A stretch of 64,000 nt of DNA from Thiocapsa bogorovii. Lineage in GTDB: Bacteria > Pseudomonadota > Gammaproteobacteria > Chromatiales > Chromatiaceae. The notes below the pieces were generated by a model that ran no database searches, had not been told where the DNA came from, and saw only the letters and a list, made by a program, of their open reading frames with translations. The stretch covers positions 1,984,001 to 2,048,000 of the forward strand of contig NZ_CP089309.1 in assembly GCF_021228795.1 (NCBI RefSeq), read 5' to 3'. The position numbers and the translations under genes were made by a program. Position 1 is the first letter of the stretch, and the number at the start of each line of letters is the position of its first letter. Shown here in pieces: positions 11,406 through 61,645 of the stretch.

Positions 11406-12908
11406 CTCGACTTTGGCCATTTCCGGGCCTCGGCGGAAGCGCCGCGAGGCGCCGGGAGCGACGGTGACAGACCCGATTGATGTGGCGGCAGAGGGCCGCG
11501 GACGGTATCGTCCGATGTCGACCAAAACCTCGGACCTGCCCGCGGATGTTCCCTCTGCCAGCCTCGATTGTATCTGTTCTGCAGCCCTTTGCCTGCCTGT
11601 TCACCGCGCCGACCCTGGCGCATCTGCACGTCTTGCTCACGGGAACGCTGCTGGCGCAAGGACCACGCACGGTGACGGCGGCACTGCGGGCGATGGGGCT
11701 GAGCGCGGAGCGGCGCTTCGAGCGTTACCACCGGGTGCTGAATCGGGCGCGTTGGTCGTCGCGCCAAGGGGCGCGGATTCTGCTGGGGTTGTTGCTCGGG
11801 ATGTTGCCGGCGCAGGTGCCGATCGTGGTGGCGGTCGACGAGACGCTGGAACGGCGCAAGGGCGCGCGCATTCGAGCGAAGGGGATGTATCGCGATGCGG
11901 TGCGCTCCTCGCGCGGCAAGGTGGTGACCTGTTTGGGGCTGGAGTGGATCTGCATGGCGTTGTTGGTGCCCGTGCCGTGGAGCACGCGGCCTTGGGCGCT
12001 GCCCTTTCTCACCCGCTTGGCGCCGTCGAAACGGGCCGACGAGGCGGCCGCGCGGCACCATCGCACGGTCGTGGAGCTCACCATCGGGATGGTCTGGCTG
12101 GTCTCGCGCTGGCTGCAGCAACGCCGCTGGATCCTGCTCGGCGACGGCAGCTACTCCTGCATCCAGCTGGGGTGGGAAGTGCTGGCTGCGCAAGCGACCC
12201 TGATCACGCGCCTGCGCCTGGATGCACGCCTGTTCGCCTTTCCCGAGCCGGTGCCCGCCGGGCGGCGCGGCCCCAAGCCGAAGAAAGGCGGCGTACTGGC
12301 CAAGCTCGCCACACGCGAGGAAGCGGCGCACACCCGAGGCGAGGAGGTCGCGATTCAATGGTACGGACAGCCCAAAACGCTGCGCCTGCTCAGCGAGGTG
12401 TGTCTGTGGCACACCGCGGGATGGCCGCCGTTGCCGATTCGCTGGGTGCTCGTGGTCGATCCCGAGGGCCGGCTGCCGACGCAAGCCTTCTTCACCACCG
12501 ACCTGAACATGGCGCCGGCCCGCGTCGTGGAGCTGTTCGTCCAGCGCTGGTCGCTCGAGGTCACCTTCGAGGAAGTCCGTCGCCACCTCGGCGTCGAGAC
12601 CCAGCGCCAGTGGAACGACCTGGCGATCGCACGCACCACGCCGATGCTGATGGCGCTGTTCTCGCTCGTCTGTCTCATGGTCTACCGGTGGCGCGAGCGC
12701 TGGGACGCCCTGCCGCGCTCCACGGCCTGGTATCTGAAGTCCCACGCCACCTTCTCCGATTGCCTGGCCCTGGTGCGGCGCACCATCTGGGCCGAGGAGA
12801 ATTACGCCTACTCACGGTCCGAGGGGGAGATGGTCCTAATTTCGTCCAAGCGACTCGATCGCCTGCTGGAACAGCTCGCGGCGACCGCCTAGATTGGCCA
12901 AAGTCGAG
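11406..12908 (+). mobile_element. Complete insertion sequence (1,503 bp, DDE transposase)
   Basis: Bounded by perfect 14-bp terminal inverted repeats CTCGACTTTGGCCA (11406-11419) and TGGCCAAAGTCGAG (12895-12908), flanked by the direct repeat ATCTTA. It carries one intact transposase gene. The 6-bp duplication and the transposase suggest an IS4/IS701-like group, but I cannot place the family with certainty. The intact ends and gene suggest a recent, possibly still mobile element. It sits between hns and queA. Confidence 0.9.
11546..12892 (+). CDS. DDE transposase of the insertion sequence
   Basis: 448 residues from ATG 11546 (MFPLPASIV); an upstream in-frame start at 11477 gives a low-complexity leader unlike a transposase. 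Candidate catalytic residues are Asp in VAVDETLER, Asp in LLGDGSYS and Glu in RWSLEVTFEEVRRHLG, the last in the typical helix that carries the DDE glutamate. The frame is uninterrupted and ends 16 bp before the outer end of the right inverted repeat. A long open frame exists on the opposite strand but is a GC-rich shadow. Confidence 0.9.
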   Translation: MFPLPASIVSVLQPFACLFTAPTLAHLHVLLTGTLLAQGPRTVTAALRAMGLSAERRFERYHRVLNRARWSSRQGARILLGLLLGMLPAQVPIVVAVDETLERRKGARIRAKGMYRDAVRSSRGKVVTCLGLEWICMALLVPVPWSTRPWALPFLTRLAPSKRADEAAARHHRTVVELTIGMVWLVSRWLQQRRWILLGDGSYSCIQLGWEVLAAQATLITRLRLDARLFAFPEPVPAGRRGPKPKKGGVLAKLATREEAAHTRGEEVAIQWYGQPKTLRLLSEVCLWHTAGWPPLPIRWVLVVDPEGRLPTQAFFTTDLNMAPARVVELFVQRWSLEVTFEEVRRHLGVETQRQWNDLAIARTTPMLMALFSLVCLMVYRWRERWDALPRSTAWYLKSHATFSDCLALVRRTIWAEENYAYSRSEGEMVLISSKRLDRLLEQLAATA

Positions 12909-57264: not shown

Positions 57265-58635
57265 CTAACGCTCTCCTTCGGCGCACAGCGCCTCGACGAC
57301 CTGCTCCATCCGCGCGGAGCGGGAGCCCTTGACCAGGATACGGTCATCTGAGGACATCTCGGTCCGAAGCGCACGCACGAGATCCCCCTGGTCGGTAAAG
57401 TGGCGTGCGCCGTCGCCGAAGGCAGACGTCGCCGACGCGCTCAGGATGCCCACGCTGAAAAGACGATCGACGCCGGCCTCACGCGCGATCTCGCCGATTT
57501 GACGATGCAGGGCGTCGGCCTCGGAGCCCAGCTCGGCGAGGTCGCCCAAGACCAACCAACGCCTGCCCGACAGTCCCGCGAGGACCTGGATCGCCGCGGC
57601 GATCGAATCCGGATTGGCGTTGTAGGTGTCGTCGATCACGCCTGCCGCACCACATTGACGGGGACAGAGACGGCCCTTCACGGGCGTCAGCGTCGCGAGG
57701 CCCGCCTGGATCGCGCTCGGCTCGATCCCGAGCGCCAGCGCCGTCGCAGCGGCGGCCAAGGCATTGCGGGCGTTGTGCTCGCCGGCTAGACGCAGGGCGA
57801 TCGGGACCGCCTTTCCGTCGTGATGGGCAACGACATGAGTGCTGAAACCCGCCTCGTTCCACTCGACCCGGATCGCCGAGCGATCCGCCCGGAGATCCGC
57901 CCGGAGATCTTCAGGACCCTCCAGCCCGAACGTCAGGGTGCGGCGATCGGCCGCCAGTCCGTGCCAGAGAGCGGCGTACGGGGAATCGCCGGCGAAGACG
58001 AACACTCCGTGGCTCGGCAGGCCGCGGGCGATCTCGCCTTTTGCATGGGCAACGCCGTCGACACTGCCGAAACCCTCCAGGTGAGCGCGCCCGGCATTCG
58101 TGATGAGGGCGACATCCGGACGGGCGATGTCGGTCATGTAACCGATTTCGCCGTGGTGGTTGGCCCCCATTTCCAAAACGAGAAAGTCCTCGTCGCGGGC
58201 ACTCAAGAGGGTCAAGGGCATCCCGATATCGTTGTTCAGATTACCGCGGGTCGCGCGGACGCTACCGACCTGACCGAGGATGGCGGCGACCATCTCCTTG
58301 ACCGTGGTCTTGCCGTTGCTCCCCGTGATGGCGACGACTCGACCGGCGAAGCGGTCGCGCCAAGCCGCCGCGAGGGCCCCGAGCCCGGCGCGGGTATCCT
58401 GAACGATCCACTGCGGAAGGTCCACGGAGAGCGGGTGATCGACCATCGCAGCGACGGCACCCGCGGCACGGGCGGCGGCGACATGGTCATGCCCGTCGAA
58501 ACGCTCGCCGCGCAGCGCGACAAAGAGCTGGCCGCTGCAATCGGCACGGCTGTCGGTGCCGACCGAGGCGAAGTGACGATCCTCGCCTTCGAGACGACCA
58601 CCGGCGCGAGCAACAGCTTCCGAGAGAGACCACAT
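57265..58635 (-). CDS. murF: UDP-MurNAc-tripeptide--D-Ala-D-Ala ligase
   Basis: 456 residues from ATG 58635 (GTG 58638 also possible); GGAGG about 10 nt upstream sits inside the murE-like gene end and sets the start. Full three-domain MurF: N-terminal TDSRADCSGQLFVALRGERFDGHDHV, ATP loop TGSNGKTTVKEM, NLNNDIGMPLTLL, EMGANHHGEI, AHAKGEI with the carbamylated lysine, and DDTYNANPDS. A 12-bp direct duplication (about 57885-57909) encodes LRADLRAD. It accepts tripeptide, so an active MurE must exist somewhere. Confidence 0.97.
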   Translation of the reverse strand: MWSLSEAVARAGGRLEGEDRHFASVGTDSRADCSGQLFVALRGERFDGHDHVAAARAAGAVAAMVDHPLSVDLPQWIVQDTRAGLGALAAAWRDRFAGRVVAITGSNGKTTVKEMVAAILGQVGSVRATRGNLNNDIGMPLTLLSARDEDFLVLEMGANHHGEIGYMTDIARPDVALITNAGRAHLEGFGSVDGVAHAKGEIARGLPSHGVFVFAGDSPYAALWHGLAADRRTLTFGLEGPEDLRADLRADRSAIRVEWNEAGFSTHVVAHHDGKAVPIALRLAGEHNARNALAAAATALALGIEPSAIQAGLATLTPVKGRLCPRQCGAAGVIDDTYNANPDSIAAAIQVLAGLSGRRWLVLGDLAELGSEADALHRQIGEIAREAGVDRLFSVGILSASATSAFGDGARHFTDQGDLVRALRTEMSSDDRILVKGSRSARMEQVVEALCAEGER

Positions 58636-59879
58636 CACCGACGACCCTCCTTCCATTCCCGTAATGCCTCGACGACTTGGGCGCGGTCGCTGAAGCGCAC
58701 CTTGAGCTCGCCCATCTCTTGGATCGTCTCGTGACCTTTACCGGCCACCAGCACGGCATCACCGATGCCCGCCAGGGTGATCGCAGTGCGGATCGCGAGG
58801 GCGCGCCGGCGTCTCACCCGTACGCGCCCCGGATCGACAACGCCGGCGAGGATATCGGCGAGGATGGTCTCGCCGCACTCCCCGCGCGGATTATCGTCGG
58901 TGAGGATCAGCTCGTCGCTCAGACGCTCGGCAATCGCCCCCATGACGGGGCGACTGTCGCGGTCGCGTTCGCCGGCGCAGCCGAAGACCGTGAAGATGCG
59001 CCGTGGACCATGTCGGCGCAGATTCACGAGCGCCGTCTCGAGTGCGGCCGGTGTCCGGGCCTCGTCGACGACGATCAGCGGTGTTTGCGCGTCGCCGAAA
59101 CATTCCATGCGGCCGGGCACGCCCTGGATCAGGCTCAACTCCCTCGCAGCGCGCTCGAGCGGAAGACCGCGCGCGAGCAACACGGCCAAGACGGCCAGAA
59201 GATTGTTCGCATTGAAGGCACCGATCAGACCGACAGCGAAATCCGCCTCGGTATGGGCATCGCGCGTCTCACAGGCGACGCACAACCGCAGACCCCTCGG
59301 CATCGGCGCGATCTCTCGGGCACGAAGCCGGATATCGCATGCGCGCAGGACGTCGTCATCGGGGAGCGCCGCGTTCCGCTCCACTAAGAAACCCGCCACA
59401 GCGACACCCGTCGGCAGTGCATCCAGGATGGTCTTCGAAAAAGGATCGCTCAGATTCAGGACGGCCCACTTCAGATCGGGAGACCCGAAGAGACGCAGGA
59501 CAGCGTCGGCGCGATCCGAAGACGCGCCCCTATCGCTCGGATCGGCTCCATCCATTCCGGTGAAGAGCACATGCGTGAAGTGAAGGTCCTCCGCCCGGGA
59601 GCACGCGAGCGCCTCGAAGGGGACCTCGATGGCAACGGCCCGGGCACCGCGCAGACAGAGCCCCTCGAGCGTCGCACATAGGCCGCGAGCGGCGGGGTCG
59701 CCCGTCGTCTTGAGGTCGCCGGGAAACCCGTGACCGACGGTGGCGATGACGCCGCAAGGCATTTCTACGGCCAAAACCTGCGCCAGAGCGTGGGCAACGC
59801 TGGTCTTCCCCCGCGCCCCAATGACGCCGAAGGTCTCCGGGCGGGCGTTCGGCGAGCCCAAGAGGCGATCCGCCATCAT
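58635..59879 (-). CDS. MurE-like protein lacking N-terminal domain and catalytic motifs
   Basis: 414 residues from ATG 59879, overlapping the ftsI stop as ATGA; MurE is normally about 490-500. It occupies the murE position but starts only about 20 residues before the ATP loop, so the UDP-binding N-terminal domain is absent; the frame upstream lies in ftsI and does not encode it. Motif changes compared with E. coli MurE: GTNGKTT is GARGKTS, EVSSHGL is EVPFEAL, NLSRDHLDYHG is TGMDGADPSDRG, the carbamylated lysine in the EAAKWLLY helix is lost (DRADAVLRLF), and DYAHTPDAL is DEARTPAAL. Kept are VFGCAGERDRDSRP, the diaminopimelate motif DDNPR, PGRME and AGKGHE. Probably catalytically dead or altered; a binding or regulatory role is speculation. 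Confidence 0.85.
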   Translation of the reverse strand: MMADRLLGSPNARPETFGVIGARGKTSVAHALAQVLAVEMPCGVIATVGHGFPGDLKTTGDPAARGLCATLEGLCLRGARAVAIEVPFEALACSRAEDLHFTHVLFTGMDGADPSDRGASSDRADAVLRLFGSPDLKWAVLNLSDPFSKTILDALPTGVAVAGFLVERNAALPDDDVLRACDIRLRAREIAPMPRGLRLCVACETRDAHTEADFAVGLIGAFNANNLLAVLAVLLARGLPLERAARELSLIQGVPGRMECFGDAQTPLIVVDEARTPAALETALVNLRRHGPRRIFTVFGCAGERDRDSRPVMGAIAERLSDELILTDDNPRGECGETILADILAGVVDPGRVRVRRRRALAIRTAITLAGIGDAVLVAGKGHETIQEMGELKVRFSDRAQVVEALREWKEGRR

Positions 59880-61645
59880 GGCTGGGCCTCGCGTCGGGCA
59901 AGCAACATCGAGGGTTGCGGGTCGTCCGGAGGGACATTGAACAGTCGCAAAGCGCCTTCCATCACTTTCTGGAAGACGGGCGCGGCCACGAGTCCACCGT
60001 AGTAAGCCTTGCCCTTCGGTTCGTCGATCATCACCGCGATCACCAAGCGCGGCGAGCCCGCGGGGGCGAAGCCCGCAAACACGGCCTGATAGCGCCCGCC
60101 GCCGTAGCCGGCGCGACCTGACGATTTCTTGGCCGTCCCGGTCTTGCCGGCGACCCGATATCCGGTGATGGCTGCGCGTTTCGCGGTGCCTTGATCGGAA
60201 ACGACCGTTTCCATCATCGCCCTTACCTTGCGCGCCGTTTCGGCGCTCAGGACGCGGGTTTCCTCGCCCGCACGCGCAGGGGAGGCGGGATCCTGTCTCA
60301 TGAGTGTCACCGGACGCTTGATGCCGTCCGCGGCCAACACTCCATAGGCTTGAGCCAGTTGCAACGCCGTGACCGACAAGCCGTAGCCGAAGGCCTGGGT
60401 GGCATGTTCGAAGACGCGCCATGTCGAATGATGCCGCAGCACGCCTCGGCTCTCGCCCGGCACGCCGACATCGGTCGCGTGGCCGAAGCCGAGCTGATCG
60501 TAAAGACCCCAAAGATCGCCGTAGCTCATCATCTGGGCGATCTTCACGATGCCGACGTTGCTCGATTTGGTGATCACGCCGGTCACGCTGAGGTTGCCGT
60601 AGTTGCGCACGTCCTTGACGGTATTGCGCCCGACCGACAACACCCCGCCCCGCGTCGCGATCGTCGTCTTCGGCGTGATCAAGCCCCGCTCCAGCGCGGC
60701 GGCCACGACAAACGGCTTGATCGTCGAACCCGGCTCCATGACGTCGGTCACCGCACGATTGCGACGACGCTCGCTGCTGCCGCCGCGCTGTGCGTTCGGG
60801 TTGTAGCCCGGCTGGTTGACCATCGCAAGGATCTCGCCGGTCTCCACATCCAGAGCCACCAACGTGCCGCCGACCGCCTTGTGCTCGGCAACGGCGGCCT
60901 TGAGCTCGCGGTAGGCGAGGAACTGAAGGCGACGGTCGAGACTGAGCGCGATATCCGCGCCCTGGCGCGGCGCGCGGACCTGTTCGATCTCCTGAACGAT
61001 CTGCTGTCGACCGTCGCGAATGACCCGACGCAGCCCGGGTTCGGATTTGAGCCAGGAATCGTAGGTCAGCTCGATACCCTCCTGGCCCTTGTCGTCGATA
61101 TCGGTGAATCCGAGGACGTGCCCGAAGACCTCGACACCCGGATAGAAGCGGCGATACTCGGTCTCGAAGTCCACGCCGACGAGATCGTGGTCGGCGATGA
61201 CTTGGCGCACCGCGCGCGCTTCCTCGAAGCTGACACGCCGCTTGAGATAGAGAAACCCACGCTCGGCGGTGGCATCGAGCCGTTCCTGCAGCGCGTTCGG
61301 TTCGAGCCCCAGTGCCCTGGCCAACGGCGGGATCGCGTCGCGTCGCTCGACCAGCTTGCGCGGCTCGCCCCAGACCGTCTCCACTGGTGTGCTCACCGCC
61401 AGCGGCTCGCCGTTGCGGTCGGTGATCATGCCACGGCGCGCTGCGATCTCGCCCACACGCAGATAACGACGCTCGCCTTCACTGCGCAGATAGTCGGTCT
61501 CGACGACCTGGCGATAGAAGACCGCAACCGAGAGCACGACAAAGGCGCTCGACAGGACACCGACCAACAGGCGGCGACGCAGCGCGAGATTCGGCTTGGC
61601 GCGCCTCGGCTCCGGACGTCGGGCACGACGGTTACGGGTAGACAC
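59876..61645 (-). CDS. ftsI: Septal transpeptidase FtsI (PBP3)
   Basis: 589 residues. One N-terminal TM (LLVGVLSSAFVVLSVAVFY), non-catalytic domain (RGMITDRNGEPLAVS), and a class B transpeptidase domain with SxxK in GSTIKPFVVA, SxN in KSSNVGI and KTGTAKK. It cross-links septal peptidoglycan together with FtsW. It overlaps ftsL by 14 bp and the murE-like gene by 4 bp. Confidence 0.98.
   Translation of the reverse strand: MSTRNRRARRPEPRRAKPNLALRRRLLVGVLSSAFVVLSVAVFYRQVVETDYLRSEGERRYLRVGEIAARRGMITDRNGEPLAVSTPVETVWGEPRKLVERRDAIPPLARALGLEPNALQERLDATAERGFLYLKRRVSFEEARAVRQVIADHDLVGVDFETEYRRFYPGVEVFGHVLGFTDIDDKGQEGIELTYDSWLKSEPGLRRVIRDGRQQIVQEIEQVRAPRQGADIALSLDRRLQFLAYRELKAAVAEHKAVGGTLVALDVETGEILAMVNQPGYNPNAQRGGSSERRRNRAVTDVMEPGSTIKPFVVAAALERGLITPKTTIATRGGVLSVGRNTVKDVRNYGNLSVTGVITKSSNVGIVKIAQMMSYGDLWGLYDQLGFGHATDVGVPGESRGVLRHHSTWRVFEHATQAFGYGLSVTALQLAQAYGVLAADGIKRPVTLMRQDPASPARAGEETRVLSAETARKVRAMMETVVSDQGTAKRAAITGYRVAGKTGTAKKSSGRAGYGGGRYQAVFAGFAPAGSPRLVIAVMIDEPKGKAYYGGLVAAPVFQKVMEGALRLFNVPPDDPQPSMLLARREAQP

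What the first reader, a model, noticed from the sequence alone, without database searches (positions are those of the whole stretch)
58635..59879. Degenerate MurE-like protein in the murE slot of an otherwise intact dcw cluster
Seen directly: 414 residues instead of about 495, no N-terminal UDP-binding domain, and loss of the ATP-loop Thr/Asn pattern (GARGKTS), the SSH motif, DHLDYHG, the carbamylated lysine and DYAHTP. Yet DDNPR (meso-diaminopimelate recognition), PGRME, VFGCxGxRD and AGKGHE are preserved and the gene is embedded by 4-bp overlaps. Every other Mur ligase in the cluster (MurC, MurD, MurF) has intact motifs. Selective loss of catalysis with retained C-terminal recognition suggests a pseudoenzyme with a binding or scaffolding role, with the real MurE elsewhere in the genome. 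Role is inference.
Basis: partly seen in the sequence, partly recalled or inferred. Interest (0 to 1): 0.75.

Follow-up and report, generated by a model that had tools for sequence, protein, structure and literature searches.

The report
Displaced MurE kept as selected pseudoenzyme
In purple sulfur bacteria an essential cell-wall enzyme has apparently been replaced by a foreign copy elsewhere in the genome, and the old gene survives in its cell-wall operon as a shortened, very probably inactive protein that natural selection still protects.

Summary
Window 58635-59879 (-) encodes a 414-residue MurE homologue without the UDP-binding N-domain and most catalytic residues; P-loop GxxGKTS, DDNPR and KGHE remain. 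The chromosome length equals that of Thiocapsa bogorovii BBS.

The predicted second MurE exists: a full-length gene ("MurE2") at 672 kb with its catalytic motifs, grouping with Bdellovibrionota MurE, hence a probable xenologue. Of 210 family genomes, 64 carry MurE2; in these the dcw murE is degenerate in 21, absent in 37 and undetermined in 6, and intact in none seen. All 48 intact dcw MurE examined come from MurE2-less genomes; the one degenerate exception carries murE2's usual neighbour at a contig edge.

The window's copy is not a drifting pseudogene. Among six truncated Thiocapsa orthologues omega is 0.09-0.11 for the C-domain (active MurF 0.10-0.12) and 0.20-0.22 for the middle domain. 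P-loop Lys, Asn414, Gly464 and Glu468 persist in 22 of 22 degenerate copies. Yet a nested Thiocapsa deleted the gene, leaving a 27-codon ORF.

Best reading: displacement, then a selected but dispensable pseudoenzyme that probably still binds nucleotide and meso-DAP. Its role (Mur-complex scaffold or sensor) is inference. Closest analogue: plant PAP11.

The parts
58635..59879 (-). dMurE: degenerate MurE-like protein, 414 aa, middle + C-terminal Mur ligase domains only
   Evidence: AF2 model pLDDT 87.2, pTM 0.88
59181..59819 (-). middle domain (Pfam Mur_ligase_M, residues 21-233)
   Evidence: omega 0.20-0.22 in six truncated orthologues (domain border there set just before PGRMEC)
59799..59819 (-). 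retained P-loop skeleton GARGKTS (residues 21-27; GTNGKTS in active relatives)
   Evidence: G115, G118 and K119 kept in 22/22, N117 in 2/22 degenerate copies
59049..59069 (-). VDEARTP, the altered VDYAHTP motif (Y357E, H359R)
   Evidence: Y357 kept in 0/22 degenerate copies (G056 has Phe, as 2 of 48 intact copies do not have Tyr), D356 and A358 in 22/22
58734..59114 (-). C-terminal domain (Pfam Mur_ligase_C, residues 256-382)
   Evidence: omega 0.094-0.108, about that of active MurF
58884..58898 (-). DDNPR meso-DAP recognition motif (residues 328-332)
   Evidence: D413 21/22, N414 22/22, R416 20/22
58728..58745 (-). AGKGHE (residues 379-384), meso-DAP contact loop
   Evidence: G464 22/22, E468 22/22, H467 13/22
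59876..59879 (-). ATGA overlap of ftsI stop and dMurE start
58633..58637 (-). TGATG overlap of dMurE stop and the conserved murF start
   Evidence: relatives' murF starts
59876..61645 (-). ftsI (PBP3), upstream neighbour
   Evidence: omega 0.048-0.058 over residues 90-589
57265..58635 (-). murF, downstream neighbour, intact motifs to my reading
   Evidence: omega 0.104-0.118

Best explanation
The gene is the native dcw murE of a purple sulfur bacterium whose essential ligase job was taken over by a probably xenologous MurE (MurE2) elsewhere in the chromosome. Freed from catalysis, the dcw copy lost the acceptor-activating residues, and in most Thiocapsa the whole UDP-MurNAc-binding domain by an in-frame deletion that kept the start codon and the overlap with ftsI. 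What remains is a two-domain pseudoenzyme under purifying selection that keeps the nucleotide grip and the meso-DAP pocket. Most likely mechanism: it responds to ATP/ADP and meso-DAP without making a bond, and acts as a non-catalytic partner (scaffold or precursor sensor) of the Mur machinery made beside it, first of all MurF. Shown here: displacement pattern, loss of catalytic residues, selection. Inferred from residue retention and fold: inactivity and ligand binding. Inferred from operon position and precedents only: the partner and the role.
For: Second full-length MurE with its motifs at G000:C1:671894-673327. MurE2 in 64 of 210 family genomes; of these 21 have a degenerate dcw copy, 37 no murE in the slot, 6 undetermined, 0 intact seen. 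Catalytic set 15/15 in 48 of 48 intact copies of MurE2-less genomes against 3-12/15 in 22 degenerate copies. ATP set 7/7 in 21 of 22; meso-DAP set 4-6 of 6 in all 22. Post-loss omega 0.094-0.108 (C) and 0.20-0.22 (M) in six truncated orthologues; omega=1 rejected by 2dlnL 192 (C) and 207 (M); none of 400 neutral simulations went below 0.585. C-domain omega is 0.05-0.14 in four full-length degenerate groups. By parsimony on a MurF+FtsI tree degeneration arose in at least four lineages. Metagenomic proteins P0013 and P0095 suggest further N-domain deletions with other junctions. Best structural match is PAP11, a MurE homologue reported as a peripheral RNA-polymerase component.
Against: G010, sister of G001 within the truncated Thiocapsa, has deleted all but 27 codons; G005 and G006 lack the gene; 37 MurE2 genomes read across the slot have no murE. 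Some retained residues may be structural, so their retention need not mean ligand binding. R416 is lost in 2 of 22 and R389 in 7 of 22, and metagenomic P0013 reads DDSPR, so meso-DAP contacts are not absolutely kept. The mildest copies (Thiohalocapsa, G140) may be young, so their retention says little, and the omega values may include time before inactivation. dS in the C-domain is somewhat lower than in the M-domain (0.23-0.48 against 0.33-0.62). No binding, expression or interaction data exist here.
Confidence: 0.65

Rival explanations
1. A slowly decaying relic: redundant after MurE2 arrived, kept as an open frame because stops or frameshifts would be polar on the translationally coupled murF, and otherwise useless.
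For: ATGA and TGATG overlaps; G010 kept exactly a start-to-stop mini-ORF with both overlaps; 37 genomes have no murE left in the slot; G200 holds a degraded relic of about 290 bp; the N-domain is relaxed (omega 0.22-0.42 in three of the four degenerate groups that keep it).
Against: Coupling protects the frame, not the amino acids: C-domain omega is about that of active MurF, while synonymous change there is only moderately lower than in the M-domain. Ligand-contacting residues (K119, N414, E468) are kept in 22 of 22. In 21 of 37 MurE2 genomes without murE the aligned ends of FtsI and MurF lie within 32 nt or overlap, so a spacer is not needed.
Confidence: 0.22
2. Neofunctionalised enzyme: an ATP-dependent ligase or kinase using meso-DAP (or a peptide carrying it) with a different acceptor, as FolC and cyanophycin synthetase are Mur-fold ligases without the UDP-binding domain (recalled).
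Against: The Lys that is carbamylated in active enzymes is lost in 16 of 22 copies and H210 in 15 of 22, so acyl-phosphate formation of the Mur kind is unlikely; FolC model score 24.4 against a cut-off of 162.65; lineages differ in what replaces the dead residues.
Confidence: 0.08
3. It is still the cell's MurE, working as a shortened but active ligase, and the 672-kb gene has another job.
For: TIGR01085 scores it just above the cut-off (265.8 against 257.3); it stands in the murE slot.
Against: No UDP-MurNAc-binding domain, and K224, H210, T157/T158, Q190 and Y357/H359 lost; equivalog models score far below cut-off (267.8 against 586); MurE2 has its motifs, omega 0.065-0.086, and is in all 11 Thiocapsa, including three without dMurE.
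Confidence: 0.02
4. dMurE is a regulatory half of a heteromer with MurE2 itself rather than of the dcw-encoded machinery.
For: 21 of 22 genomes with a degenerate copy have MurE2; in G056 its expected place may lie off the contig.
Against: The dependence is one-way: 37 MurE2 genomes have no dMurE; nothing shown links the two proteins physically.
Confidence: 0.08

Closest known systems
[quoted passage not shown]
   Different: Plant plastid proteins with terminal extensions (chains of 768-774 residues), part of an RNA polymerase; separate origin. dMurE has no extension and sits in a bacterial dcw operon. The plant paper leaves open that PAP11 keeps some catalysis.
Canonical MurE (E. coli 1e8c/7b53; TIGR01085)
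   Different: N-domain, carbamylated Lys, T157/T158, H210, Y357 and H359 lost.
MurE-MurF fusion and its MurG partner (Bordetella pertussis)
   Same: Shows that MurE and MurF can work tethered and contact MurG (PMC6420597, abstract and passages); basis for the scaffold idea.
   Different: Both halves are enzymes there; no pseudoenzyme.
MurT of MurT/GatD
   Same: A Mur-ligase-type protein recruited to another wall step; its active-site loop lacks the Mur histidine (PMC6085368, passages).
   Different: MurT is catalytic with GatD; Pfam finds only the general Mur middle and C domains in dMurE.

Membership tests
MurE ligase (TIGR01085 and equivalogs) | profile score over cut-off | tested here: inconclusive
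   TIGR01085 265.8 against 257.3: over; equivalogs NF001123 267.8 against 586, NF001124 246.4 against 476, NF001126 221.6 against 373: under
MurE ligase (TIGR01085 and equivalogs) | N-terminal UDP-MurNAc-binding domain | tested here: not met
   Pfam and NCBIfam matches begin at the linker; the start codon is fused to it
MurE ligase (TIGR01085 and equivalogs) | substrate and acyl-phosphate residues (T116/N117, T157/T158, H210, K224, Y357/H359 and others) | tested here: not met
   4 of the 15 residues of my catalytic set kept in the window's copy
MurE ligase (TIGR01085 and equivalogs) | meso-DAP pocket (R389, D413, N414, R416, G464, E468) | tested here: met
   6 of 6 in the window's copy; roles from PMC9434261 section 11
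MurE ligase (TIGR01085 and equivalogs) | ligase activity | not testable with these tools
   needs enzyme assay or complementation
PAP11 / MurE-like of plastid RNA polymerase | MurE fold with lost ligase role and kept DNPR | tested here: inconclusive
   fold and residue pattern agree; loss of ligase role not assayed
PAP11 / MurE-like of plastid RNA polymerase | plant plastid protein with terminal extensions, component of the RNA polymerase | tested here: not met
   414-aa bacterial protein without extensions; membership of a polymerase not tested
MurT | MurT-type C-terminal domain (recalled) | tested here: not met
   only PF08245 and PF02875 found
MurT | gatD partner gene | not tested
   no search for gatD was made
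FolC | TIGR01499 over cut-off | tested here: not met
   24.4 against 162.65
Pseudogene | broken frame or neutral evolution | tested here: not met
   no internal stop in the 8 Thiocapsa hits; omega far below 1

The most novel reading that the evidence does not exclude
After a foreign MurE took over catalysis, purple sulfur bacteria turned the native dcw MurE into a dedicated ATP- and meso-DAP-binding subunit of the Mur/divisome machinery, a bacterial counterpart of plant PAP11, with the UDP-MurNAc domain deleted apparently more than once and the subunit discarded again in some species.
Probability: 0.38. Interest if true: 0.8.

Novelty: new variant of a known kind. Interest (0 to 1): 0.62.

Why it matters
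It is a visible series of an essential cell-wall enzyme being replaced: intact, dead but full-length, N-domain deleted, 27-codon remnant, gone, all within one family. It separates the two things a Mur ligase may do, catalysis and being part of a complex: if a dead MurE is still selected, a non-catalytic role of Mur ligases becomes testable in a cultured organism. It also means that public annotations of this gene as a meso-DAP ligase or tripeptide synthetase are probably wrong, and that searches for MurE by its place in the dcw cluster can pick a dead protein.

Tried and rejected
Sequencing error or frameshift: rejected, five other Thiocapsa genomes carry the same truncated form. Active MurE: rejected on residues. 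Neutral pseudogene: rejected on omega and simulation. Nucleotide-level constraint (promoter, RNA) as the cause of C-domain conservation: not enough, since synonymous change there is only moderately lower than in the M-domain. MurT and FolC membership: not met on the features tested. A single origin of all degenerate copies: not favoured by the tree; four degenerate groups have an intact sister. Whether MurE2 was gained once and lost, or moved between genera with its gltP-like neighbour, was not settled. Expectation that G056's contig would show the end of murE2: its 188 bases before the gltP-like gene do not encode it; the gap in the window's genome is 208-209 nt, so murE2 may lie off the contig, which is consistent but not proof. 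Papers: ten searches; among the titles and abstract starts listed (several listings were capped, e.g. 15 of 108 and 10 of 126) none was on a MurE pseudoenzyme in bacteria or on murE in Chromatiaceae; the library holds only open-licence papers.

Limits of counts: the 48 intact copies are those whose DNA I fetched, out of about 140 MurE2-less genomes with a dcw hit (167 hits, less 21 MurE2 genomes, less 6 that I judged cross-hits of MurE2 from E-values of 1e-50 to 1e-62); they are mostly the better-scoring ones and not a random sample. Six MurE2 genomes (G114, G115, G173, G207, G213, G214) could not be judged because FtsI or MurF was not found on the stretch or at the cut-off. The Fisher value treats related genomes as independent and overstates significance. 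Which copies were called degenerate was my decision; one search then counted 15 residues chosen from published roles and recall, with Tyr or Phe accepted at 357. The assignment of N310, R341 and D356 to the ATP site is my mapping, not a tool result. The tree is midpoint-rooted, has long branches, and its outside sequences were fetched because they resemble MurE2.

Full report
What is there. The finding's coordinates hold a 414-residue MurE homologue read on the minus strand between ftsI and murF. Pfam sees only the Mur middle and C-terminal domains. The start codon overlaps the ftsI stop (ATGA) and the stop overlaps the conserved murF start (TGATG). The window lies at 1,984,001-2,048,000 of a single 5,649,927-base contig; that is the chromosome length published for Thiocapsa bogorovii (roseopersicina) BBS (PMC10892978, passages), and G004 of the same genus group has a contig of the same length as a Thiocapsa marina record that holds the same gene. 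The sister gene in G008 still has the N-domain, starting MMAL..., and the truncated proteins start MMADR/MMVDR where G008 reads ...IADRF: an in-frame deletion has joined the old start to the linker.

The real MurE. The same genome has one other MurE over the family cut-off (283.5 bits with its two stretches joined), at 671,894-673,327. It reads GTNGKTTT, SSHALDQGR, DHLDYHG with its Lys, DFAHTP, SDNPR (not DDNPR), GCGGDRD and AGKGHE. In a 56-sequence midpoint-rooted tree it and its Chromatiaceae relatives (support 87) sit next to MurE of Bacteriovoracaceae and Bdellovibrionales (84), away from the dcw MurE of Chromatiaceae (100). In two Bacteriovoracaceae MAGs the gene lies, by my reading of the ORFs, in ftsI-murE-murF-mraY order, so it is probably their ordinary MurE. 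MurE2 is therefore probably a xenologue; support is moderate, branches are long and the donor is not proven. A gltP-like gene lies beside murE2 in 24 of 41 loci from ten genera, among them 9 of 11 Thiocapsa (not G005 and G006); several loci are cut short by contig ends.

Displacement across the family. MurE2 is found in 64 of 210 family genomes, 13 of 61 genera. A dcw MurE search gave 167 of 210 at its cut-off. I read 70 dcw-slot MurE sequences: all 21 MurE2 genomes with a dcw copy, and 49 MurE2-less ones. By a 15-residue catalytic set, 48 MurE2-less copies score 15/15, and the 21 MurE2 copies plus G056 score 3-12. G056 is the one MurE2-less genome with a degenerate copy; it is 81% complete and carries the gltP-like gene 189 bases from a contig end, a gene not found at the same cut-off in the 10 other MurE2-less genomes tested but found in 3 of 4 MurE2 genomes tested (G214 lacks it), so murE2 may be off the contig (one search does not show it). 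Of the other 43 MurE2 genomes, 37 could be read across the slot and have no murE: in 21 the aligned ends of FtsI and MurF overlap or lie within 32 nt, in 16 they are 50-289 nt apart; G010 keeps a 27-codon ORF made of the start and the last codons of dMurE, and G200 keeps a relic of about 290 bp; 6 could not be judged.

History. On a MurF+FtsI tree of 104 genomes degenerate copies in Thiohalocapsa (g38), in G140, in G056 and in the clade of Thiocapsa and allies each have an intact sister, so by parsimony degeneration happened at least four times; several supports are weak (54-72 within Thiocapsa, 79 and 84 at two of the deeper splits used). G010 is sister to truncated G001 (99). Metagenomic proteins P0013 and P0095 show other joins of the start to the middle domain; their DNA was not read, so they are indications of further N-domain deletions, not proof.

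Selection. Six Thiocapsa orthologues (G000-G004, G007) share the deletion and the dead motifs, so their differences arose after the loss. Pairwise dS is 0.34-0.54 for the whole gene, 0.33-0.62 for the M-domain and 0.23-0.48 for the C-domain. Maximum-likelihood omega (MG/GY codon models): whole 0.19/0.16, middle domain 0.22/0.20, C-domain 0.108/0.094; MurF 0.118/0.104, FtsI 0.058/0.048, MurE2 0.086/0.065. Omega = 1 is rejected (2dlnL 207 for M, 192 for C). Neutral simulations of this gene gave omega of at least 0.585 in 400 runs. In four full-length degenerate groups the C-domain has omega 0.05-0.14 and in five intact groups 0.04-0.10; the N-domain has 0.10-0.42 in the degenerate and 0.10-0.18 in the intact groups; the degenerate groups there may include time before inactivation. 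In the window's gene the most constrained stretch is the last 55 or so residues (pN/pS 0.07-0.12).

Mechanism. The pattern, nucleotide grip and amino-acid pocket kept, acceptor site and chemistry gone, fits a protein that still responds to ATP/ADP and meso-DAP but makes no bond. The location and the reported MurE-MurF-MurG contacts in Bordetella (PMC6420597, abstract and passages) suggest MurF or MurG as partner. This last step is inference. The main rival is a relic whose frame is protected by coupling to murF; it explains G010 well but not the amino-acid constraint. Both can be true in sequence: a selected pseudoenzyme that some species no longer need.

Novelty. Ten literature searches listed no report of a MurE pseudoenzyme in bacteria; several listings were capped and only titles and abstract starts were seen. 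The plant precedent PAP11 makes this a new variant of a known kind. Public records name the protein as a ligase, a tripeptide synthetase or 'Mur ligase family protein'.

Noticed in passing
L009:9895-11331 and 11537-12733: A gltP-like symporter gene lies beside murE2 in 24 of 41 loci from ten genera; at E<=1e-60 it is missing from 10 of 11 MurE2-less genomes tested and from 1 of 4 MurE2 genomes tested.
   Followed up: partly
L071 (G010), between ftsI and murF: 27-codon mini-ORF left by an in-frame deletion of the dcw murE, with both overlaps kept: a possible translational-coupling peptide.
   Followed up: partly
L230 (G200), between ftsI and murF: About 290 bp of degraded murE relic (46% identity to residues 357-422 of an intact MurE).
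   Followed up: partly
L009:9895-11331: The MurE2-family proteins listed show only the Mur middle and C-terminal Pfam domains, although they have full length; their N-domain looks divergent.
   Followed up: no
L072 (G006), L222 (G176), L234 (G244): murF matches reported with one stop codon inside; could be assembly errors or alignment-edge stops.
   Followed up: no
G173 (single contig, 99% complete): No murF match at E<=1e-60 although MurE2 and the gltP-like gene are present.
   Followed up: no
P0001, P0005, P0018 (public proteins): Degenerate copies are annotated as UDP-N-acetylmuramyl-tripeptide synthetase or meso-DAP ligase.
   Followed up: no
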